From assembly GCF_004296575.1 (NCBI RefSeq), contig NZ_SAYT01000001.1:552906-616905 (forward strand): a stretch of DNA of 64,000 nt, given 5' to 3'. Of this stretch, positions 55,392 to 64,000 are shown piece after piece. The notes under the pieces are model-generated. The model saw only the letters and a list, made by a program, of their open reading frames with translations, was not told the origin of the DNA and made no database searches. This DNA comes from Dyella amyloliquefaciens (GTDB lineage Bacteria > Pseudomonadota > Gammaproteobacteria > Xanthomonadales > Rhodanobacteraceae). How positions within the stretch are numbered: position 1 is the first letter of the stretch; each line of letters starts with the position of its first letter. The position numbers were made by a program, and so were the translations under genes.

Positions 55392-56168
55392 TTACTTGCT
55401 GGAGGCCTTGTAGGTCAGGTCGCTGCTGTAGCTGTCCACGTGCGATGAACTGCTTTCAGTGGCGTCGTTGAGCGACTTGCGCATCGCCTGAGCGTCCTGC
55501 TGGCCATACACGTTGGCAACCATCGTCCATAGCGGTGTTTCCGGATCCTTGCCCAGGTCTTCCCACGACTTGGCGGGAATGATCACGACGAAGTCCGGTG
55601 AATCGGCACCGGCATGCTGCATCTCGCCGATCATGTAGTTGTTGGGCCACTTGGCCTTGTCTGCGGCTGCGGCGATCTTCTTGATCACGTCGACAAAGGC
55701 CTCATGCGGCTCGTGACCGTTCTTAAGCTTGAAGTCGACGACCTGGATGAACGGCGACGACAGCTGCATGCCCTTGGGCATGTGGCTCAGGTCCACGCGT
55801 GCCACGACGAACCCGCTCACTTCGCTCTTGAGGTGCGGATTGACGCTTGTGCGGTAGATCTGGTCGCACGCCTTGCTCGTCTCGTGCATCGCGTCGAAGG
55901 CTGACCACGGCACCGCATCGGTGGTGTAGGAGTACGCATAGGTGTCGCCGGTTTCGTGCGACCAGGCGGTCCATGTGTACTTGAAGCCATGCTCGCTCAG
56001 GCACTGGTTGTAGCTCTTGATACCGGTTTCATAGGCCTGCTGGTCGGCCGGGGCGACATAGTCGGTGTAATCACGGATGAGCATGGGCTTGGGCGCGTCG
56101 GCAGCAACGACAGCGCTGATGCAGCAGCAGGCGGCCACGCAGGCCAGCCAGAGCGTCGATGATTTCAT
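55392..56168 (-). CDS. Secreted protein of unknown function
   Basis: 258 residues from ATG 56168 (AAGGGAGAACACC upstream). Signal peptide MKSSTLWLACVAACCCISAV to AA-DAPKP. The mature part has Cys in YNQCLSEH and KACDQIY, and a beta-rich region with VARVDLSHMPKGMQLSSPFI and SWEDLGKDPE. Not recognised. The ribosome site is strong. Separated from the upstream gene by nearly 480 bp. Confidence 0.8.
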   Translation of the reverse strand: MKSSTLWLACVAACCCISAVVAADAPKPMLIRDYTDYVAPADQQAYETGIKSYNQCLSEHGFKYTWTAWSHETGDTYAYSYTTDAVPWSAFDAMHETSKACDQIYRTSVNPHLKSEVSGFVVARVDLSHMPKGMQLSSPFIQVVDFKLKNGHEPHEAFVDVIKKIAAAADKAKWPNNYMIGEMQHAGADSPDFVVIIPAKSWEDLGKDPETPLWTMVANVYGQQDAQAMRKSLNDATESSSSHVDSYSSDLTYKASSK

Positions 56169-57707: not shown

Positions 57708-58103
57708 ATGCCCCAGCGCGTCGCCACTTGCAGTTGTCGTCAGCTGATGTTGCGTACGACGGAAGAACCGTTGCGCGTTTCCATTTGTCATTGCCATGCG
57801 TGCCAGCGACGGACCGGCAGCGTGTTCGCCGTGCAGGCGCGCTTCCGCGAAGGGAGCGTGGTCGTCCGTGGCAACGCCACGCAGTACGTTCGCAAGGGCG
57901 ATACCGGTCAGGACGCCACGTTCCATTTCTGCCCGGTGTGCGGTTCCACGTTGTACTACCAGCTGGATTCCGTGGACGGCCTGATTGGCGTGCCCGTGGG
58001 TGCCTTTGCCAACCCGGATTTTCCCGCACCGAACATTTCCGTGTTCGAGGAGTGCATGCATTCGTGGGTGGTGTTGCCGGAAGGCATCGAGCACATGGAT
58101 TGA
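57708..58103 (+). CDS. GFA-family protein (third copy)
   Basis: 131 residues from ATG 57708. GFA zinc ligands: TCSCRQ at the start, CHCHAC (about 27-32), CPVCG, and the family C-terminal SWVVLPEGIEH. Same fold as the proteins at 9661 and 10518, but diverged. Function not proven; these proteins are often annotated as formaldehyde-activating. No strong ribosome site. Start chosen by family length. Confidence 0.87.
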   Translation: MPQRVATCSCRQLMLRTTEEPLRVSICHCHACQRRTGSVFAVQARFREGSVVVRGNATQYVRKGDTGQDATFHFCPVCGSTLYYQLDSVDGLIGVPVGAFANPDFPAPNISVFEECMHSWVVLPEGIEHMD

Positions 58104-58240
58104 TTGGCCATCCGCCGTGACGGCTGGAAAATGCGCCCCGGTCTCACGCGATTTGCAACGCAAAAACTTGCACTTCAAGGATGTATAGGGGGCGCCGATA
58201 CCTGTCATGGGGGGATAATCGTCCCTGGCAGGGGTTTGTC

Positions 58241-59899
58241 ATGCGCTTTACCGTTCGTCTGAAAATCATTGCGGCCATGGGCATTGCCCTGGCCATAGCG
58301 GTCGTCGTGGGTGTGGTCGGGCTTTATGGCGTACGCGCCACGTACCGGCTGGTCGACGATATGTATCGCTCCAACGTGCTCGCGATCGTCGCCGTCAGTG
58401 ACGTGCGCACGGCCATCATCAATGATCGGCTCGCACTCAATCGTTCGATCATCGATCCCAGCCAGCGCACTCTTGGGAAGAAGGTCGCGGCCGACAAGGT
58501 GCGGCTGGACGCGGCGTGGCATCGCTATTACCCCGCCATGGTGTCCACGGATGAAGAGCGCCGCGTGGCCGAGCAATTCGAAGCCGCCCGCAAGGAAACC
58601 CTTCCCGTGATGGATCACGAGGTCGAGTTGCTGGACGCAGGCAAGACCGACGAAGGTCGTGCGCTGCACATCGGCAAGGTGGGTGATGGCATGAGCCGCG
58701 AAACGGCCGCCATCGACCAGTTGGTCGGCATCAACGAGAAGCAGGCGGAAAATTCTGCGGCGGACGCGGCTGCGCATTTCGCGCGCACGTGGAAGGTCTC
58801 CATCGCCATGCTAGTGCTGGGTGTGCTGGTCCTGCTGGCGGTTGCCATGGCGCTGATCCGGGCCGTGACGCGACCGCTGAACCAGGCCCGCTTGCTTGCC
58901 AGCGCGATCCAGCAAGGACGGCTCAACAACACGACCGCCATCACCGGCAACGACGAATTCAGCGACACGCTGCATTCGCTGGACGACATGGATCGCCAGC
59001 TCACCGCCATCGTCACCCAGGTGCGTGACGTGGCCGAGCAGGTCAATCATGCCGCGCGCGATCTTTCCCAGGGCAACGACGACCTGTCCCAGCGCACGCA
59101 GGAACAGGCCAGCTCGCTTGAGGAAACCGCGGCCTCGATGGAAGAGCTGGCCACCACGGTGAAGCAGAATGCCGAGGGTGCGGGCCAGGCGCGCGAGATG
59201 GCGCTGCGCATGCGCCGACGCGCCGAAGAGGGTCGTGACGTCGCGGTCACTGCCGTCGACGCGATGCAGGCGATCACCCAGGCCAGCAAGGAAGTGGGTG
59301 AGATCGTGGGCATGATCGATGAGATCGCCTTCCAGACCAATCTGCTGGCCTTGAATGCCGCGGTGGAAGCGGCGCGCGCGGGCGAGCAGGGGCGCGGCTT
59401 CTCGGTGGTGGCCACCGAGGTGCGCAATCTCGCCCAGCGCAGCAGCGTGGCGGCCAAGAGCATCAAGTCGCTGATCCAGGACACCACGTTCAAGGTGTCC
59501 GAAGGCGCAGGCCTGGTGCAACGTACCGGCCAGGCTCTCAACGACATCGCCGGCGACGTGCGTGAAGTGAGCACGATCATCGAAGTGATCGCCGCGGCGT
59601 CCGAAGAACAGTCCGCCGGCATCGGCCAGGTGAACAACGCGGTGATGACGCTGGATGACGTGACCCAGCAGAACGCCGCCCTGGTCGAGGAAGCCAGCGC
59701 GGCCAGCCGCAATACGCTAGACCTGTCACAGGTACTGATGAAGCAGGTGGCTTACTTCACCCTGCAGGGCGAAACGGTCGTGGCGAAGCCGGCCATCGAA
59801 CCTGCGGCCGTTCGACCGCCGGTCGGTCCGGCCCGGTCCCTCAAGCGCGCCGCCAGTGCCGAACTTGCCGTGGCCGGAGATGCCTGGACGGAATTCTGA
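58241..59899 (+). CDS. Methyl-accepting chemotaxis protein
   Basis: 552 residues from ATG 58241 (AGGGG upstream). TM1 (about 8-30), a periplasmic four-helix-bundle sensor (4HB_MCP type, about 31-185), TM2 (about 187-208), HAMP, and a signalling domain with the hairpin tip [20 protein letters not shown] and [13 protein letters not shown]. The C-terminus ends DAWTEF, close to the CheR/CheB-tethering pentapeptide (xWxxF). No other chemotaxis gene is near, so it feeds a remote CheA/CheW array. Confidence 0.93.
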
Positions 59900-59990
59900 G
59901 CGACTTCTCGGAATGGCATTCAACCCATGGCGCGCTCGGACGTTCCATGCATGGGCCATCATCCTGATGGCGGCGAAGCAAGAGGAACCT

Positions 59991-60239
59991 ATGCAGTCAG
60001 GAGAGTCCGATCGTTGGGCAAGGACGCGCGAGCGTGGCATGTGGCGCTTTGTGCTGCGCAGCGGTGTGCTGTTCTATGGCCTGCCGATGTTTTTCATCAT
60101 GACCTACCTCATCCCCCATCCGCGATTGACGACACCGCAGTCCGCCGTGTTGTGGCTGATTGGCGGCGCGGGCTACGGCCTGGCCATGTGGATGGTGCAG
60201 GAACGCCGATTCAGAAAGGTGACTCGACGCCCATCGTGA
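59991..60239 (+). CDS. Small two-helix membrane protein
   Basis: 82 residues from ATG 59991 (AAGAGGAACCT upstream). Two membrane helices (about 21-40 and 52-70) with a charged N-terminus (SDRWARTRERGMWRF) and a basic tail (ERRFRKVTRRPS). Function unknown. Located after the chemoreceptor gene but probably separate. Confidence 0.65.
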   Translation: MQSGESDRWARTRERGMWRFVLRSGVLFYGLPMFFIMTYLIPHPRLTTPQSAVLWLIGGAGYGLAMWMVQERRFRKVTRRPS

Positions 60240-60495
60240 TTTTCCCTTCACGAAAAGGCGAATCGCTTTTCATCTGGTCTTTCGGTCTGCTGGCGCAGTG
60301 TCTCGTGAGACCGCGGTCGGGCGGTTTGTGGCTGCGGTGGGTCGGTGTGTACGTGTGCCTGCATCACGGGCGGCGTGACAACCGGGAGGCTTCAGCAAGT
60401 TCCGCCTGACGTAGGGGGCGGGGTCTCTCGGCATGCAGCTTGCCCACGCTATGCGGGCGCGCGCACGCATGAAGCCAACAAAAGGAGACCAGACC

Positions 60496-61077
60496 ATGGC
60501 ACGCCAAATTACCTACGTCGTTCGTGCATTCGCTGGTGCAATGATCGTCGCGCTCTGCGGCTGCTCTGACTTCGTCAAGAAGACCGATTACGACGCCGCC
60601 ATCACCGAACTGCGCGGCAACGATCAGAAGCAACAGCAGGAAATCGATTCGATCAAGCAGGACATGCAGCAGAAGTTCGCGCAGTACGATTCGCAGATCA
60701 CCGCCATGCAGGGGCGCATCAGCGTCAATACGATCGCGCACTTCGATACCAATCAATCGACGATCCGCGACGACGACAAGAAGCAGCTCGATGATTTCGC
60801 CAAGATCATCAAGGACCATCATTCCAATGCCGTCATCACCGCCGAAGGGTTCGCCGACCCGTCGGGCAGCGCAGGCTACAACCGCCGTCTTGCCCAGAAA
60901 AGGGCTGACGCCGTACGCGACTACCTGATCCAGACCGGCGGCCTCAATGCCGAACAGGTCCGCGCCGTCGGCTACGGCGAAGTGAAGAACCGCCAGGTCG
61001 TGAAAGGCGCCCATGGCGACGAAGGCCAGCCGAACCGCCGCGTGACCCTGGTGACGGATTTCACCGGTAGTACCTGA
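60496..61077 (+). CDS. OmpA-type peptidoglycan-binding lipoprotein
   Basis: 193 residues from ATG 60496 (AAAGGAG upstream). Lipobox ALCGC (Cys about 24), a coiled coil (about 30-75, EIDSIKQDMQQKFAQYDSQI) and an OmpA C-terminal domain (about 80-190: IAHFDTNQSTIRDDDKKQLD, AEGFADPSGSAGYNRRLAQK, NRRVTLV). It resembles Pal-like proteins that link the outer membrane to peptidoglycan, with an added coiled coil. Monocistronic, with a hairpin after it. Confidence 0.9.
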   Translation: MARQITYVVRAFAGAMIVALCGCSDFVKKTDYDAAITELRGNDQKQQQEIDSIKQDMQQKFAQYDSQITAMQGRISVNTIAHFDTNQSTIRDDDKKQLDDFAKIIKDHHSNAVITAEGFADPSGSAGYNRRLAQKRADAVRDYLIQTGGLNAEQVRAVGYGEVKNRQVVKGAHGDEGQPNRRVTLVTDFTGST

Positions 61078-61133
61078 GGCTTCTTTGGTCAGCGTGCCAT
61101 TCCATATGGCACGGAGCTGGTTGTAGCTAAACG

Positions 61134-61163
61134 ACAAACGCCGCCCCACGGGGCGGCGTTTGT
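61134..61163 (+). terminator. Terminator after the OmpA-type lipoprotein gene
   Basis: ACAAACGCCGCCCC/GGGGCGGCGTTTGT with 2 nt between (practically a 12 bp stem and 6 nt loop), preceded by a second small hairpin at 61094-61112. No long T run. Confidence 0.75.
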
Positions 61164-61284
61164 GCTTTCCGGCAAAACGCTCGGGATCAGGATTTCATCG
61201 AACTGAAGAGTTCGTGATCGGCCGTCATTGGTTGAACCTTCCAAATGAGCCTTCTCACTTGCGGTCGATCGACAGCGGTCTTGC

Positions 61285-61313
61285 TTGAAACTTACAAACC
61301 GTGACAGTAATGT
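61285..61313 (+). promoter_or_regulatory. Sigma-70 promoter for the LTA-synthase-like gene
   Basis: TTGAAA (61285-61290), 17 bp spacer, TAATGT (61308-61313): a good match in both boxes and spacing. About 90 bp upstream of the start codon, no other gene in between. Confidence 0.68.
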
Positions 61314-61402
61314 TATCACTACGTCAGCTTGGCGTAAGTTTTTGCGCAAGGGCGTGACGGACGCTCGAAACGACGATTTGTTTCTTGCTCGGGGGCTGCC
61401 GC

Positions 61403-63163
61403 GTGAACAGAAGTGGATATCGCAGCGTGGCGAAGATTGCCATCGGCGTGCTCCTCGTCGCGTGTTTTGCCTGGGTGCTGGATCGCTGGTCGCTGGGTGT
61501 CGCAACCGATGCCTATCTATTTTCTTATGGATTCTGGGTGCAGGCAGGGGTCGTTGCGCTGACGACACTTGCAGTCATTGCACTGACGTCACGTGTGTGG
61601 CTGGCGTGCTGGATGACTTCGGCACTGCTGGCTGCGCTTTACGTGGCCAATTACTTCAAGCTCCACTACCTGGCTTCACCGATCACGATCGAAGACTACT
61701 TTCTAGTCAAAGATCTCGATGCCGATGGGTTGTCCCTGTTCCTGCACTATCTGAACGTAGGTTGGTTACTGGTCTGTGCCCTCTTGTTCGCGGGAGTTGG
61801 CGGGGTGTTGTTCTGGAGGGAGGGGCGGCTGATCACCGGGCGGCGGTTACCGCGTGCCGTGATGTTTCTTCTCTCTTTTGCAATGCTGGCCGCGTGTGCC
61901 TCGGGTAGCACCGGAGAGCGCATCTTCGATGCCGACCGCCTTCGCGTCCTGCCGTTCAATCCTGTCGTTAGTCAGTTGCGTGCTGGGCTCGTAAGCCACC
62001 TCATGTATTCCGCCCGTTACATGGCTCGGGCGTTTGACGAACCTGTCGATCCGGAAGCCGTGCGGCGGTTGGTCGCGAGCGTTCGGTTCAATGCGGATCG
62101 GAAACCCGCAGACGAAAAACAGGGTTTGCCGCCGGATGTTGTGGTCATTCAAAGCGAGTCGTTCTTCAATCCAGATAGCATCAGGGAGGTTGGCGACACC
62201 TCCGACTTATTGCCCAACTTGCATCGCGCGATTACGCAAGGTGAGGGCGGCGCAATGATCGTGCCGACATTTGGTGGCGGAACGATTCGGACCGAATTCG
62301 AGGTGCTTACAGCTGTTCCGCTGCGGGCATACGCGAAGGTGCAATTTCCGTACCTTCAATTTGGGCAAGACAAGGTGCCGAGCATCGCGCGTGTTTTTTC
62401 TGGAGCAGGCTACGAATCTATTGCGATACATGGCAACAGCGGCACCTTCTGGAGTCGTAATCACGCCTTACGTGTGCTTGGGTTTGACCGCTTCCTGACT
62501 GAAAAAGACTTTGGGAAAGACGCGCAACGGGATGGCGCATTCCTGTCAGATCGGTCGATGACCGACAAGATCATCAACGAACTGGACAAGCCCGGACGAC
62601 CGCGCTTTATCTTTGCCATCAGCATCGAAGCGCATGGTCCATATACCCAAGTACCCGTTTCGGATGAGTCGTCTCGAGAACTCATGGCGCACTCCTCGCC
62701 GTTTTCGGCCGACGCAGCGGACGAGTACTCGCACTATGCCTATCACATTGCGCACGCCGACCACGAATTCGGGCGCCTTTGGGATTACCTGAAAAGACGT
62801 GGGCGCCCATACCTCTTGGTTTTTTATGGCGACCATCTGCCTGGATTCCGCTACGTATATCAAAGCGCCACCTTCCGGAATGGGTTGTCCGCTCAGGATC
62901 AGCAGGTCCCTTGGGTGGCGGTTGGCTCCGATGTGCAGCAGTCCACGCAGAAGAGCATTTACTCTTGGATGTTGCCAGGCCACGTACTCGATTTGGCTGG
63001 CCTGAAGCAGCAGTCCTATATGGGTCTCGCAGAACTTATCGGCCGGAACTTGTTGGACGACAGCGCGGATGAAGAGGCGCAGCGAGCGGGGCTCTACTCA
63101 GCCGCTCGGCTGGACCTTCAAGGCAAGTTCGACAGTTCTGATGAATGGAGTGGGATCCAGTGA
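61403..63163 (+). CDS. Phosphoglycerol-transferase / LTA synthase-like sulfatase-fold enzyme
   Basis: 586 residues from GTG 61403 (GGGGG upstream; TTG 61385 is an alternative). Four or five membrane helices in the first 165 residues, then an extracytoplasmic alkaline-phosphatase/sulfatase-fold domain: VVVIQSESFFNPD (metal-binding Glu), FGGGTIRTEFEVLT (Thr nucleophile region, about 285-295), GYESIAIHGNSGTFWSRNHA, VFYGDHLPGF (metal Asp/His). In Gram-negatives such enzymes move phosphoglycerol or phosphoethanolamine onto glucans or lipids. It is followed by a coupled gene. Confidence 0.88.
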   Translation: MNRSGYRSVAKIAIGVLLVACFAWVLDRWSLGVATDAYLFSYGFWVQAGVVALTTLAVIALTSRVWLACWMTSALLAALYVANYFKLHYLASPITIEDYFLVKDLDADGLSLFLHYLNVGWLLVCALLFAGVGGVLFWREGRLITGRRLPRAVMFLLSFAMLAACASGSTGERIFDADRLRVLPFNPVVSQLRAGLVSHLMYSARYMARAFDEPVDPEAVRRLVASVRFNADRKPADEKQGLPPDVVVIQSESFFNPDSIREVGDTSDLLPNLHRAITQGEGGAMIVPTFGGGTIRTEFEVLTAVPLRAYAKVQFPYLQFGQDKVPSIARVFSGAGYESIAIHGNSGTFWSRNHALRVLGFDRFLTEKDFGKDAQRDGAFLSDRSMTDKIINELDKPGRPRFIFAISIEAHGPYTQVPVSDESSRELMAHSSPFSADAADEYSHYAYHIAHADHEFGRLWDYLKRRGRPYLLVFYGDHLPGFRYVYQSATFRNGLSAQDQQVPWVAVGSDVQQSTQKSIYSWMLPGHVLDLAGLKQQSYMGLAELIGRNLLDDSADEEAQRAGLYSAARLDLQGKFDSSDEWSGIQ

Positions 63164-63549
63164 TCCGTGAACGCCTGTTGGCTGTGCCCGGGAGGCTACG
63201 TTTGGTGGCGCTTGGGTTTGTCGCAGTTCTTGTTGCCTGCACCCTCAAAATACTCTTTTGGGGCGGGTTCGGCGTACTGATCATGACGCCCGACGAGGGA
63301 GATTTTTGCCGTTCACCCGAAGGCATCGCCGTGGAGTTGCGCTGGCTTGCCATTAATCGGAATGGGACGAAGTTTACTAACTACGGACCGGCGGGCACTC
63401 ATCCTTTCCCTTGGCGTCAGGCCGGACGCATGGGAACTTTGCAAACCGGGCCGTGGTTTACTGAGGGCGTCAGCGTCGTGATGACCGATCCTGAGGGCCA
63501 TGTGCTGGCGCGGAAAACGATGGCTGCCATCCGGTGCCCGAATACGTAA
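63160..63549 (+). CDS. Membrane protein coupled to the LTA-synthase-like gene
   Basis: 129 residues from GTG 63160, which overlaps the previous stop by 4 bp (GTGA). One membrane helix (about residues 12-33, GRLRLVALGFVAVLVACTLK), then a short extracytoplasmic part with two cysteines (GDFCRSPE and AIRCPNT) that could pair. Not recognised. The overlap argues that it works with the transferase. Confidence 0.75.
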   Translation: MIRERLLAVPGRLRLVALGFVAVLVACTLKILFWGGFGVLIMTPDEGDFCRSPEGIAVELRWLAINRNGTKFTNYGPAGTHPFPWRQAGRMGTLQTGPWFTEGVSVVMTDPEGHVLARKTMAAIRCPNT

Positions 63550-63869
63550 TCCGGTCATGAGGCCTGCGTTACCCGGGATACAACCTGTGCTTACGCTTCA
63601 TGCCCAAGCCAATAGGACATGCGAGACCATAAAAAAGCCGCCCAAAGGCGGCTTTTTTATGGATGAAACGCTGGCGATCAACGCTTCATCGAATTGAAGA
63701 ACGCAGCGTTGGGCTTGGCTCAGTTGTTCTTGTTGAGCGTGAAATTCTCTCGTTCAACGAAGGGGCTGGCGTGCAAAGGAACGAGGTCTTGGAAAGCGGG
63801 TCTGGTACCGATTAGGAATTGGGCGACAAGGATCGTCTGGACTTCCGAATGGAAGTCTACACACCGCGT
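63550..63869. other. Gap between the LTA operon and the converging acyltransferase gene
   Basis: About 320 bp with a strong terminator at 63629-63660 and no credible gene. The frame at 63500-63697 runs through the terminator and is not supported. Confidence 0.55.
63629..63660. terminator. Strong bidirectional Rho-independent terminator
   Basis: Perfect stem ATAAAAAAGCCGCC/GGCGGCTTTTTTAT (63629-63642 with 63647-63660) with a 4 nt loop. A and T runs make it work on both strands. Confidence 0.95.
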
Positions 63870-64000
63870 TTAGGGTGCAGCATCGGGAAACCAGCGGCGT
63901 AGGTGGCGCTTAAGGGCCAAAGCGGGCGCCTCCACAACATGCCAGGAACACCAGCCGAGCAGGACTGTTCCGGCCATGGCGATGGCAGTTGTCGCGATAT
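63870..64000 (-). CDS. C-terminal end of an acyltransferase-3 (OafA-like) gene, cut by the window
   Basis: On the minus strand the last 43 codons before TAA (63870-63872) encode a membrane helix followed by GWCSWHVVEAPALALKRHLR and RWFPDAAP, stop. The segment (helix, then SWxxVExPALxLKR) is the usual C-terminal end of OafA/YrhL-type acyltransferase 3 proteins that O-acetylate surface glycans. The start and most of the gene lie beyond 64000. Next to the LTA-synthase-like operon it suggests a surface-glycan locus. Confidence 0.75.
   Translation of the reverse strand, partial: IATTAIAMAGTVLLGWCSWHVVEAPALALKRHLRRWFPDAAP

What the first reader, a model, noticed from the sequence alone, without database searches (positions are those of the whole stretch)
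61285..64000. LTA-synthase-like enzyme with a coupled single-span partner next to an acyltransferase
The transferase and its partner overlap (GTGA), and the partner has two Cys outside the membrane. The adjoining gene is OafA-like. In a Gram-negative this points to phosphoglycerol- or acyl-decoration of a surface glycan. The partner is not described as far as I know.
Basis: inference. Interest (0 to 1): 0.5.

Follow-up and report, generated by a model that had tools for sequence, protein, structure and literature searches.

The report
Glycan-modifying enzyme and its Ig-like partner
A soil bacterium carries an enzyme that probably attaches glycerol-phosphate to its surface sugar chains, encoded together with a small, uncatalogued membrane-anchored protein that may hold the sugar chain for it, and relatives of that small protein sit beside or inside several other kinds of surface-sugar-modifying enzymes.

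Summary
In detail: an LTA-synthase-family gene (61385/61403-63163) overlaps by GTGA a 129-residue protein (63160-63549) with one membrane helix and two cysteines outside it; the convergent neighbour is an Acyl_transf_3 gene (63870-65024, mostly beyond the window). The transferase is closest to GacH, the streptococcal glycerol-phosphate transferase. The partner is an Ig-like beta-sandwich without a Pfam or NCBIfam family. Of 12 transferase orthologues in 233 family genomes, 11 have the partner directly downstream. The pair recurs in Lysobacter, Pseudomonas rustica and one further gammaproteobacterium; one genome has both domains in a single frame. The domain is modular: beside acyltransferase and gtr-type genes, at the C-terminus of polytopic, probably GT-C-type proteins, and at the C-terminus of Wzt-like ATPases, where its cysteines are lost. 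GT-C and Wzt C-termini are known glycan-binding-module positions. Best reading: a phosphoglycerol transferase acting on O-antigen-like glycan, with a separate acceptor-binding subunit (untested). The acyltransferase is an independent cassette at the same variable rho 3'-end site. Decaheme cytochromes also carry the domain, which argues against an exclusively glycan role.

The parts
61385..63163 (+). GacH-like LTAS-family (PF00884) membrane transferase, 592 aa from TTG 61385 or 586 aa from GTG 61403; five N-terminal hydrophobic segments, then a catalytic domain with E258, T300, H349, R358, H417, D483, H484 (numbering from 61385)
63160..63549 (+). partner protein, 129 aa from GTG 63160 (GTGA overlap with the transferase stop): membrane anchor 11-34, Ig-like beta-sandwich about 36-128, conserved C50/C126
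63627..63662 (.). perfect 16-nt inverted repeat with A/T runs: bidirectional terminator-like hairpin between the partner and the convergent acyltransferase
61129..61168 (.). 19-nt inverted repeat (89%) between the OmpA-like gene and the transferase: terminator-like, so the pair looks like its own two-gene unit
63870..64000 (-). 3' end of an Acyl_transf_3 (OafA-like) gene that continues to window-frame position 65024 (L016:9870-11024); convergent neighbour, judged an independent cassette
63678..63743 (-). decayed duplicate (66 nt, 80%) of the 3' end of rho, between the partner and the acyltransferase
61194..61215 (-). short (22 nt, 86%, E 0.36 in the BLAST) duplicate of the end of rho upstream of the transferase; its 16-nt core has three exact copies in the genome: here, at 63685 and at the end of rho itself

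Best explanation
The two genes form one unit. The first product is an inner-membrane, GacH-like phosphoglycerol transferase: its Thr300 nucleophile takes glycerol-phosphate from phosphatidylglycerol at the outer face of the inner membrane and passes it to a sugar of a surface polysaccharide, most likely lipid-linked O-antigen in the periplasm. The second product is a periplasmic, disulfide-closed Ig-like domain tethered to the membrane, which binds the acceptor polysaccharide and holds it at the transferase: a carbohydrate-binding module carried as a separate subunit. Shown: both genes, intact catalytic residues, similarity to GacH, near-constant coupling of the orthologous transferase, coupling in three separate transferase lineages (independent origin not shown), and the same domain on or beside other glycan genes. 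Inferred: donor, acceptor, disulfide, glycan binding and complex formation.
For: Transferase: best solved match GacH (phmmer 2e-23; Foldseek 1.1e-14); E258, T300, H349, R358, H417, D483, H484 invariant in 29 rows. Coupling: 12 orthologues score 830-903 bits, clear of the other listed matches (at most 549 bits; list cut), and by coordinates 11 of the 12 have the partner directly downstream. In a 43-row tree the window's clade (support 84/94) has the partner in 17 of 19 rows, a remote clade in 4 of 4, the widespread paralogue in 0 of 11. One 834-aa frame holds both domains. Pairs also in Lysobacter telluris and Pseudomonas rustica and G1122; a single-sequence search found the P. rustica partner in 1 of 199 genomes of its genus, its own, which suggests arrival as a unit. 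Glycan context: etfA, a flank of the xanthomonad LPS locus (PMC524487, passages), lies within 3 kb of 10 of 19 coupled partners. Domain position: C-terminus of polytopic proteins (10 frames) and of Wzt-like ATPases (2 frames). Carbohydrate-binding modules are known at the C-terminus of EmbC (PMC3044687, abstract), in ORF12, EmbA/B/C and AftD (PMC11127046, passages) and on Wzt (PMC9445017, passages). The cysteine pair is absent in the two Wzt copies and invariant in the 41 rows of A2, none of which is a Wzt copy.
Against: No binding, activity or complex has been measured. The model gives a generic Ig-like fold: no Foldseek match with E at or below 1e-3 and VIA Z at most 8.5, mostly to complement-like and antibody domains, so fold alone shows no glycan binding. 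The domain also sits inside MtrC/MtrF-like decaheme cytochromes (11 frames, Pfam-checked in one), where a glycan role is not obvious. Pfam names only 1 of the 10 polytopic fusions, below cut-off (PMT_2, 19.7 of 26.1 bits), so 'GT-C' is partly my reading. One orthologue (G001, 50% identical) lacks any partner in its genome, so the enzyme can apparently do without it. In the window's genus the pair is not in the etfA locus but at the rho 3' end, so the acceptor is less certain there. 72 of 92 frames have no LTAS gene fused or directly upstream, and 39 of 92 (decaheme, tandem, other) have no recognised glycan gene directly beside them.
Confidence: 0.45

Rival explanations
1. The partner is a structural subunit: it stabilises or positions the catalytic domain of the transferase (and of other enzymes) by protein-protein contact, without binding glycan itself.
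For: Four- and eleven-base overlaps, strict gene order and the fusion fit any subunit; the fold is a generic Ig-like sandwich.
Against: The same domain family accompanies enzymes of unrelated folds (LTAS, polytopic GT-C-like, AT3) and a Wzt-like ATPase; what these share is the polysaccharide, not a protein surface. An orthologue exists without it.
Confidence: 0.27
2. The transferase is a LtaS-family enzyme with another donor or product, for example phosphoethanolamine or a short poly-glycerol-phosphate chain, or it acts on periplasmic glucans rather than O-antigen.
For: EptA/MCR enzymes share the fold. NCBIfam gives only a weak match to the LtaS equivalog (38.5 bits against 970) and no other family. 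In the window's genus the genes are not in the etfA locus.
Against: GacH outranks LtaS, LtaP and EptA by sequence or fold. Ten of 19 coupled partners are within 3 kb of etfA, and the Pseudomonas copy lies near Glycos_transf_4, gtrA and gtrB-like genes.
Confidence: 0.25
3. Transferase, partner and acyltransferase form one three-gene decoration module.
For: Adjacent here; in L328 transferase, partner and an AT3-SGNH gene are co-directional; acyltransferases lie within a few kilobases of the pairs of L020, L097, L153 and L206 too.
Against: In the window the acyltransferase is convergent and separated by a hairpin and a rho duplicate; it is missing in 3 of 4 pair-bearing genomes of the genus and present without the pair at the site in G011.
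Confidence: 0.12
4. The partner is a general adhesion or Ig-like lipoprotein that hitch-hikes in variable surface loci and has no part in the enzyme reaction.
For: Tandem copies (7), stand-alone copies without a recognised direct neighbour (21 of 92) and copies in decaheme cytochromes (11).
Against: 11 of 12 orthologous transferases coupled, coupling in separate lineages, fusion.
Confidence: 0.1

Closest known systems
GacH, group A carbohydrate glycerol-phosphate transferase of Streptococcus pyogenes (PDB 5u9z, 5wcx, 6dgm)
   Same: Same catalytic fold and aligned active-site residues; TM part followed by an extracytoplasmic domain; best sequence and fold match. GacH takes GroP from phosphatidylglycerol to side-chain GlcNAc (PMC12282279, passages).
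   Different: 22% identity in the Foldseek alignment; Gram-negative host; about five TM segments; a separate Ig-like partner, which the passages read on GacH do not mention.
LtaS / LtaP lipoteichoic acid synthases
   Same: PF00884 fold, Thr nucleophile position.
   Different: Weaker matches than GacH; NCBIfam LtaS equivalog far below its cut-off (38.5 of 970 bits); no lipoteichoic acid is expected in this host (general knowledge).
Carbohydrate-binding modules of GT-C enzymes (EmbC, AftD, GT136 ORF12)
   Same: Extra domain outside the membrane, C-terminal to a polytopic glycan-modifying enzyme, as in 10 frames of this family.
   Different: No Pfam CBM match of weight (best CBM96, 1 of 41 members, E 0.093); here the domain is most often a separate anchored protein.
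Wzt C-terminal carbohydrate-binding domain
   Same: Position at the end of an O-antigen-type ABC-transporter ATPase (L161, L166); beta-sandwich.
   Different: No Wzt_C match among the Pfam families listed for those two proteins; the family is mostly exported with a conserved cysteine pair.
gtrA-gtrB-gtr(GT-C) O-antigen glucosylation operons
   Same: Periplasmic modification of O-antigen; four partners follow a gtrB-like GT2 gene, two of them with gtrA-like and GT-C-like genes further upstream (L100, L108).
   Different: The three-component systems in the passages read have no such fourth protein.

Membership tests
LTAS-type / GacH-like phosphoglycerol transferases | PF00884 catalytic domain above cut-off | tested here: met
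   122.7 bits against 25
LTAS-type / GacH-like phosphoglycerol transferases | Thr nucleophile and metal ligands | tested here: met
   E258, T300, D483, H484 align with GacH and are invariant in 29 rows; their roles are recalled, not measured
LTAS-type / GacH-like phosphoglycerol transferases | N-terminal polytopic part, catalytic domain outside | tested here: met
   five hydrophobic segments, helices and fold in the model
LTAS-type / GacH-like phosphoglycerol transferases | glycerol-phosphate transfer from phosphatidylglycerol to a glycan | not testable with these tools
   needs NMR or an enzyme assay
LtaS equivalog (NCBIfam NF053595) | score above curated cut-off 970 | tested here: not met
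   38.5 bits
OpgB/MdoB | match to an OpgB equivalog model | tested here: inconclusive
   only NF053595 was listed for the protein in NCBIfam; whether the library holds an OpgB model was not checked
Known Pfam or NCBIfam family for the partner | match above cut-off | tested here: not met
   no family matched more than 2 of 41 members; best E 0.0074 in Pfam and 0.0016 in NCBIfam
Carbohydrate-binding module | sequence match to a CBM or Wzt_C model | tested here: not met
   CBM96 in 1 of 41 at E 0.093; no Wzt_C listed for L161 or L166
Carbohydrate-binding module | beta-sandwich at a position known to carry CBMs | tested here: met
   model; C-termini of polytopic proteins and Wzt-like ATPases
Carbohydrate-binding module | binds glycan | not testable with these tools
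   needs purified domain
Bacterial lipoprotein | lipobox before a Cys | tested here: inconclusive
   window LVAC lies inside a longer hydrophobic helix; lipobox-like motif in 13 of 19 LTAS-coupled partners, none in 6
OafA-like acyltransferase (neighbour) | PF01757 above cut-off | tested here: met
   87.5 bits against 31

The most novel reading that the evidence does not exclude
An uncatalogued, interchangeable acceptor-binding domain serves the periplasmic decoration of O-antigens. As a tethered subunit or a fused tail it brings the same kind of polysaccharide to chemically unrelated enzymes (phosphoglycerol transferases, acyltransferases, GT-C glycosyltransferases) and, without its disulfide, to the exporter ATPase. 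Together with an enzyme it moves as a serotype-changing cassette, in Dyella at the 3' end of rho.
Probability: 0.38. Interest if true: 0.72.

Novelty: new variant of a known kind. Interest (0 to 1): 0.55.

Why it matters
To my knowledge it is not well understood how periplasmic enzymes such as GacH, OafA or Gtr proteins find the right residue on a long polymer. A small partner shared across these enzyme classes would give a direct handle: one can test whether it dictates acceptor choice. It would also annotate a domain that matches no Pfam or NCBIfam model and mark surface-variation cassettes in Xanthomonadales and some other Gammaproteobacteria.

Tried and rejected
Scans of the partner, alone or in its first eight-member alignment, against Pfam, NCBIfam and PHROGs gave only noise. 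A profile search of PDB sequences gave mostly antibody light chains at E 0.034 or worse, taken as generic Ig-like signal. The P. rustica partner had no match in the plasmid collection (E limit 1e-3) and the window's partner none in the phage collection (E limit 0.01). Promoter scan: 0 sites against 1.7 expected, no use. Papers: nine term sets; the titles and abstract starts listed show no description of such a partner, but most subscription papers are not held, and the original GacH paper was not available.

Considered and rejected: that the overlap is a chance open frame (conserved protein); that the acyltransferase belongs to the unit; that the domain is LTAS-specific; that L120 and L164 are fusions (L120 was matched only by a profile seeded from itself; L164 is a lipoprotein whose frame merely runs open upstream). 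In the wider set the first Cys is present in 95 and the second in 80 of 100 matched stretches; some missing second ones are matches that ended early (L158, L169 and L181 do have the Cys), others were not checked.

Limits of the counts: the 92 frames come from 77 loci; four of the 65 positive genomes (G627, G664, G744, G769) were not fetched, G051 was fetched but gave no frame, and L201, L206 and L328 are not among the 92. Neighbour labels come from profiles I built from single seeds, of which some were confirmed by Pfam. Pfam named only one of the 10 polytopic fusions, weakly, so 'GT-C-like' rests on many hydrophobic segments, length and neighbouring gtrB-like genes. The forced label changes on the tree (3) may include losses, so independent origins of the coupling are not shown; the fusion row L152 has a very long branch, and the L155 row is a fragment. 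One search did not list all its matches.

Full report
What is there. The host name is therefore inferred. At 61385/61403-63163 is a LTAS-family gene (PF00884) with five hydrophobic segments and a catalytic domain. At 63160-63549, overlapping by GTGA, is a 129-residue protein with one anchor helix. An OmpA-like gene precedes the pair, and an inverted repeat at 61129-61168 separates the two; a second inverted repeat at 63627-63662 follows the partner. The convergent acyltransferase (PF01757) and then rho follow. G+C is 55.6-58.4% from 61000 to the window end, against 62-67% from 58500 to 60500, but also 58.2% at 58000-58500 and 58.6% at 60500-61000; this is only a weak hint of acquired DNA.

The transferase. 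phmmer against PDB sequences gives GacH (2e-23), then LtaP and LtaS (2.8e-8 and weaker). An AlphaFold2 model from 29 rows (mean pLDDT 87.2) matches GacH first, including the sn-glycerol-1-phosphate complex 6dgm (E about 1e-14), then an uncharacterised Vibrio alkaline-phosphatase-superfamily protein (3lxq), LtaP, LtaS, MCR-1 and EptA. S257, E258, T300, H349, R358, H417, D483 and H484 are invariant in the 29 rows. Donor and product are inferred from GacH, whose reaction I read in passages of PMC12282279.

The partner. An 11-row model (mean pLDDT 84.1) shows helix 11-34 and a beta-sandwich. Foldseek finds nothing at E 1e-3 or better. The VIA second look gives Ig-like domains up to Z 8.5, with the V. 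cholerae biofilm protein RbmA at 7.5; such Z values are common and show no function. C50, W62, W99 and C126 are invariant in 41 rows. No Pfam or NCBIfam family matches more than 2 of the 41 members, none convincingly.

Coupling. With the profile A3, 12 genes of 233 family genomes score 830-903 bits, and every other listed match 549 or less (the list was cut). Eleven of the 12 have the partner directly downstream by coordinates; G001 has none in its genome (where it is G872). In the named collection, 8 of the best 80 transferase loci carry a partner directly downstream; these include Lysobacter telluris (directly after etfA, PF00766) and Pseudomonas rustica (with Glycos_transf_4, gtrA, GT2 and acyltransferase genes). 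L328 (G1122, same class) adds a pair followed by an AT3-SGNH gene. With the starts chosen here the overlap is four bases in the window, L020, L094, L097, L201 and L328, and eleven in L017-L019. In a 43-row tree the coupled label needs 5 changes against 14.6 in shuffles; well-supported branches force 3, which may include losses. The window's clade (support 84/94) holds 17 coupled rows of 19, a remote clade 4 of 4, the widespread paralogue 0 of 11, and another clade 0 of 5. G048 carries both domains in one 834-aa frame: Sulfatase 230-460, partner domain 731-831.

The domain elsewhere. Profile A1 finds it in 34 of 233 family genomes; profile A2 in 65 of 398 order genomes, 3 of 369 class and 4 of 398 phylum. 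The P. rustica partner as a single query is found in 1 of 199 genomes of its genus, its own. I classified 92 frames in 77 loci: LTAS gene directly upstream 19; fused to LTAS 1; fused to polytopic proteins 10; acyltransferase adjacent 7; gtrB-like GT2 upstream 4 or downstream 2; GT-C-like downstream 3; etfA upstream 3; sulfotransferase-like upstream 2; at the end of a Wzt-like ATPase 2; inside decaheme cytochromes 11; tandem 7; other 21. The last three groups, 39 of 92, give no direct support to the glycan reading, and the cytochromes speak against an exclusive glycan role. The two Wzt copies lack both cysteines, as expected if the pair forms a disulfide only outside the cytosol.

Why glycan binding. 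Carbohydrate-binding modules are established at the C-terminus of EmbC (PMC3044687, abstract read), in the GT-C enzyme ORF12 and relatives (PMC11127046, passages), and on Wzt (PMC9445017, passages). This family occupies what look like both positions and otherwise accompanies enzymes that share the polysaccharide acceptor. etfA, a flank of the xanthomonad LPS locus (PMC524487, passages), is within 3 kb of 10 of 19 coupled partners. This is inference from position, not a test.

The acyltransferase and the rho site. In the 20 genus genomes the neighbour of the rho 3' end varies: an OmpA-like gene directly in 4, the pair in 4 (the window's genome among them, behind its acyltransferase), the acyltransferase directly in 2 (the window's genome and G011, 85% identical), a homologue of the gene at 55392-56168 in 6, and none of my query genes in 5 (loci of 3,300 bases only). 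Decayed copies of the rho 3' end border the cassettes: 66 nt at 80% in the window and 217 nt at 79% in L017 (Dyella sp. ASV24 by contig match). An extra rho-end copy beside rho is found in 2 of 20 genomes. Hence the acyltransferase next door is most simply a second cassette at the same variable site.

Verdict. The enzyme half is a new member of a known kind. The partner half is a domain family without a Pfam or NCBIfam model, with a well-supported link to glycan-modifying enzymes and a plausible but untested acceptor-binding role.

Noticed in passing
window 61194-61215 and 63678-63743; L016:11021-11320; L017:8955-9159: Decayed duplicates of the 3' end of rho border the pair and the acyltransferase; the 16-nt core has three exact copies in the genome, all here (one is the end of rho itself). 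The rho 3' end looks like an insertion hotspot for small cassettes; I saw no integrase in the parts read.
   Followed up: partly
L181:2546-5011 and ten similar frames (L179, L183-L190, L192): The partner-type domain sits inside multi-heme cytochromes, MtrC/MtrF-like where Pfam was run (L181), from genomes of one other family in the order.
   Followed up: partly
L161:8446-10347, L166:7820-9040: The domain forms the C-terminus of Wzt-like ATPases and has lost both cysteines there.
   Followed up: partly
G000:C12:302348-303985 (L054): A second LTAS-family gene (about 40% identical) belongs to a widespread paralogue group (196 of 233 family genomes have some match to A3 at E 1e-60) with no partner in any of 11 tree rows: a candidate for a conserved, different glycan target.
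   Followed up: no
L173, L174, L175, L177, L178, L180, L182: Proteins with two tandem copies of the domain, without a recognised direct neighbour.
   Followed up: no
L106:5644-7531, L111:7252-9170: Stand-alone partner-type lipoproteins directly after sulfotransferase-like genes near etfA; the sulfotransferase label is by eye.
   Followed up: no
L021:5134-9108: In G014 a partner-type lipoprotein lies 1.7 kb from a different LTAS gene in opposite orientation, in a glycosyltransferase locus.
   Followed up: no
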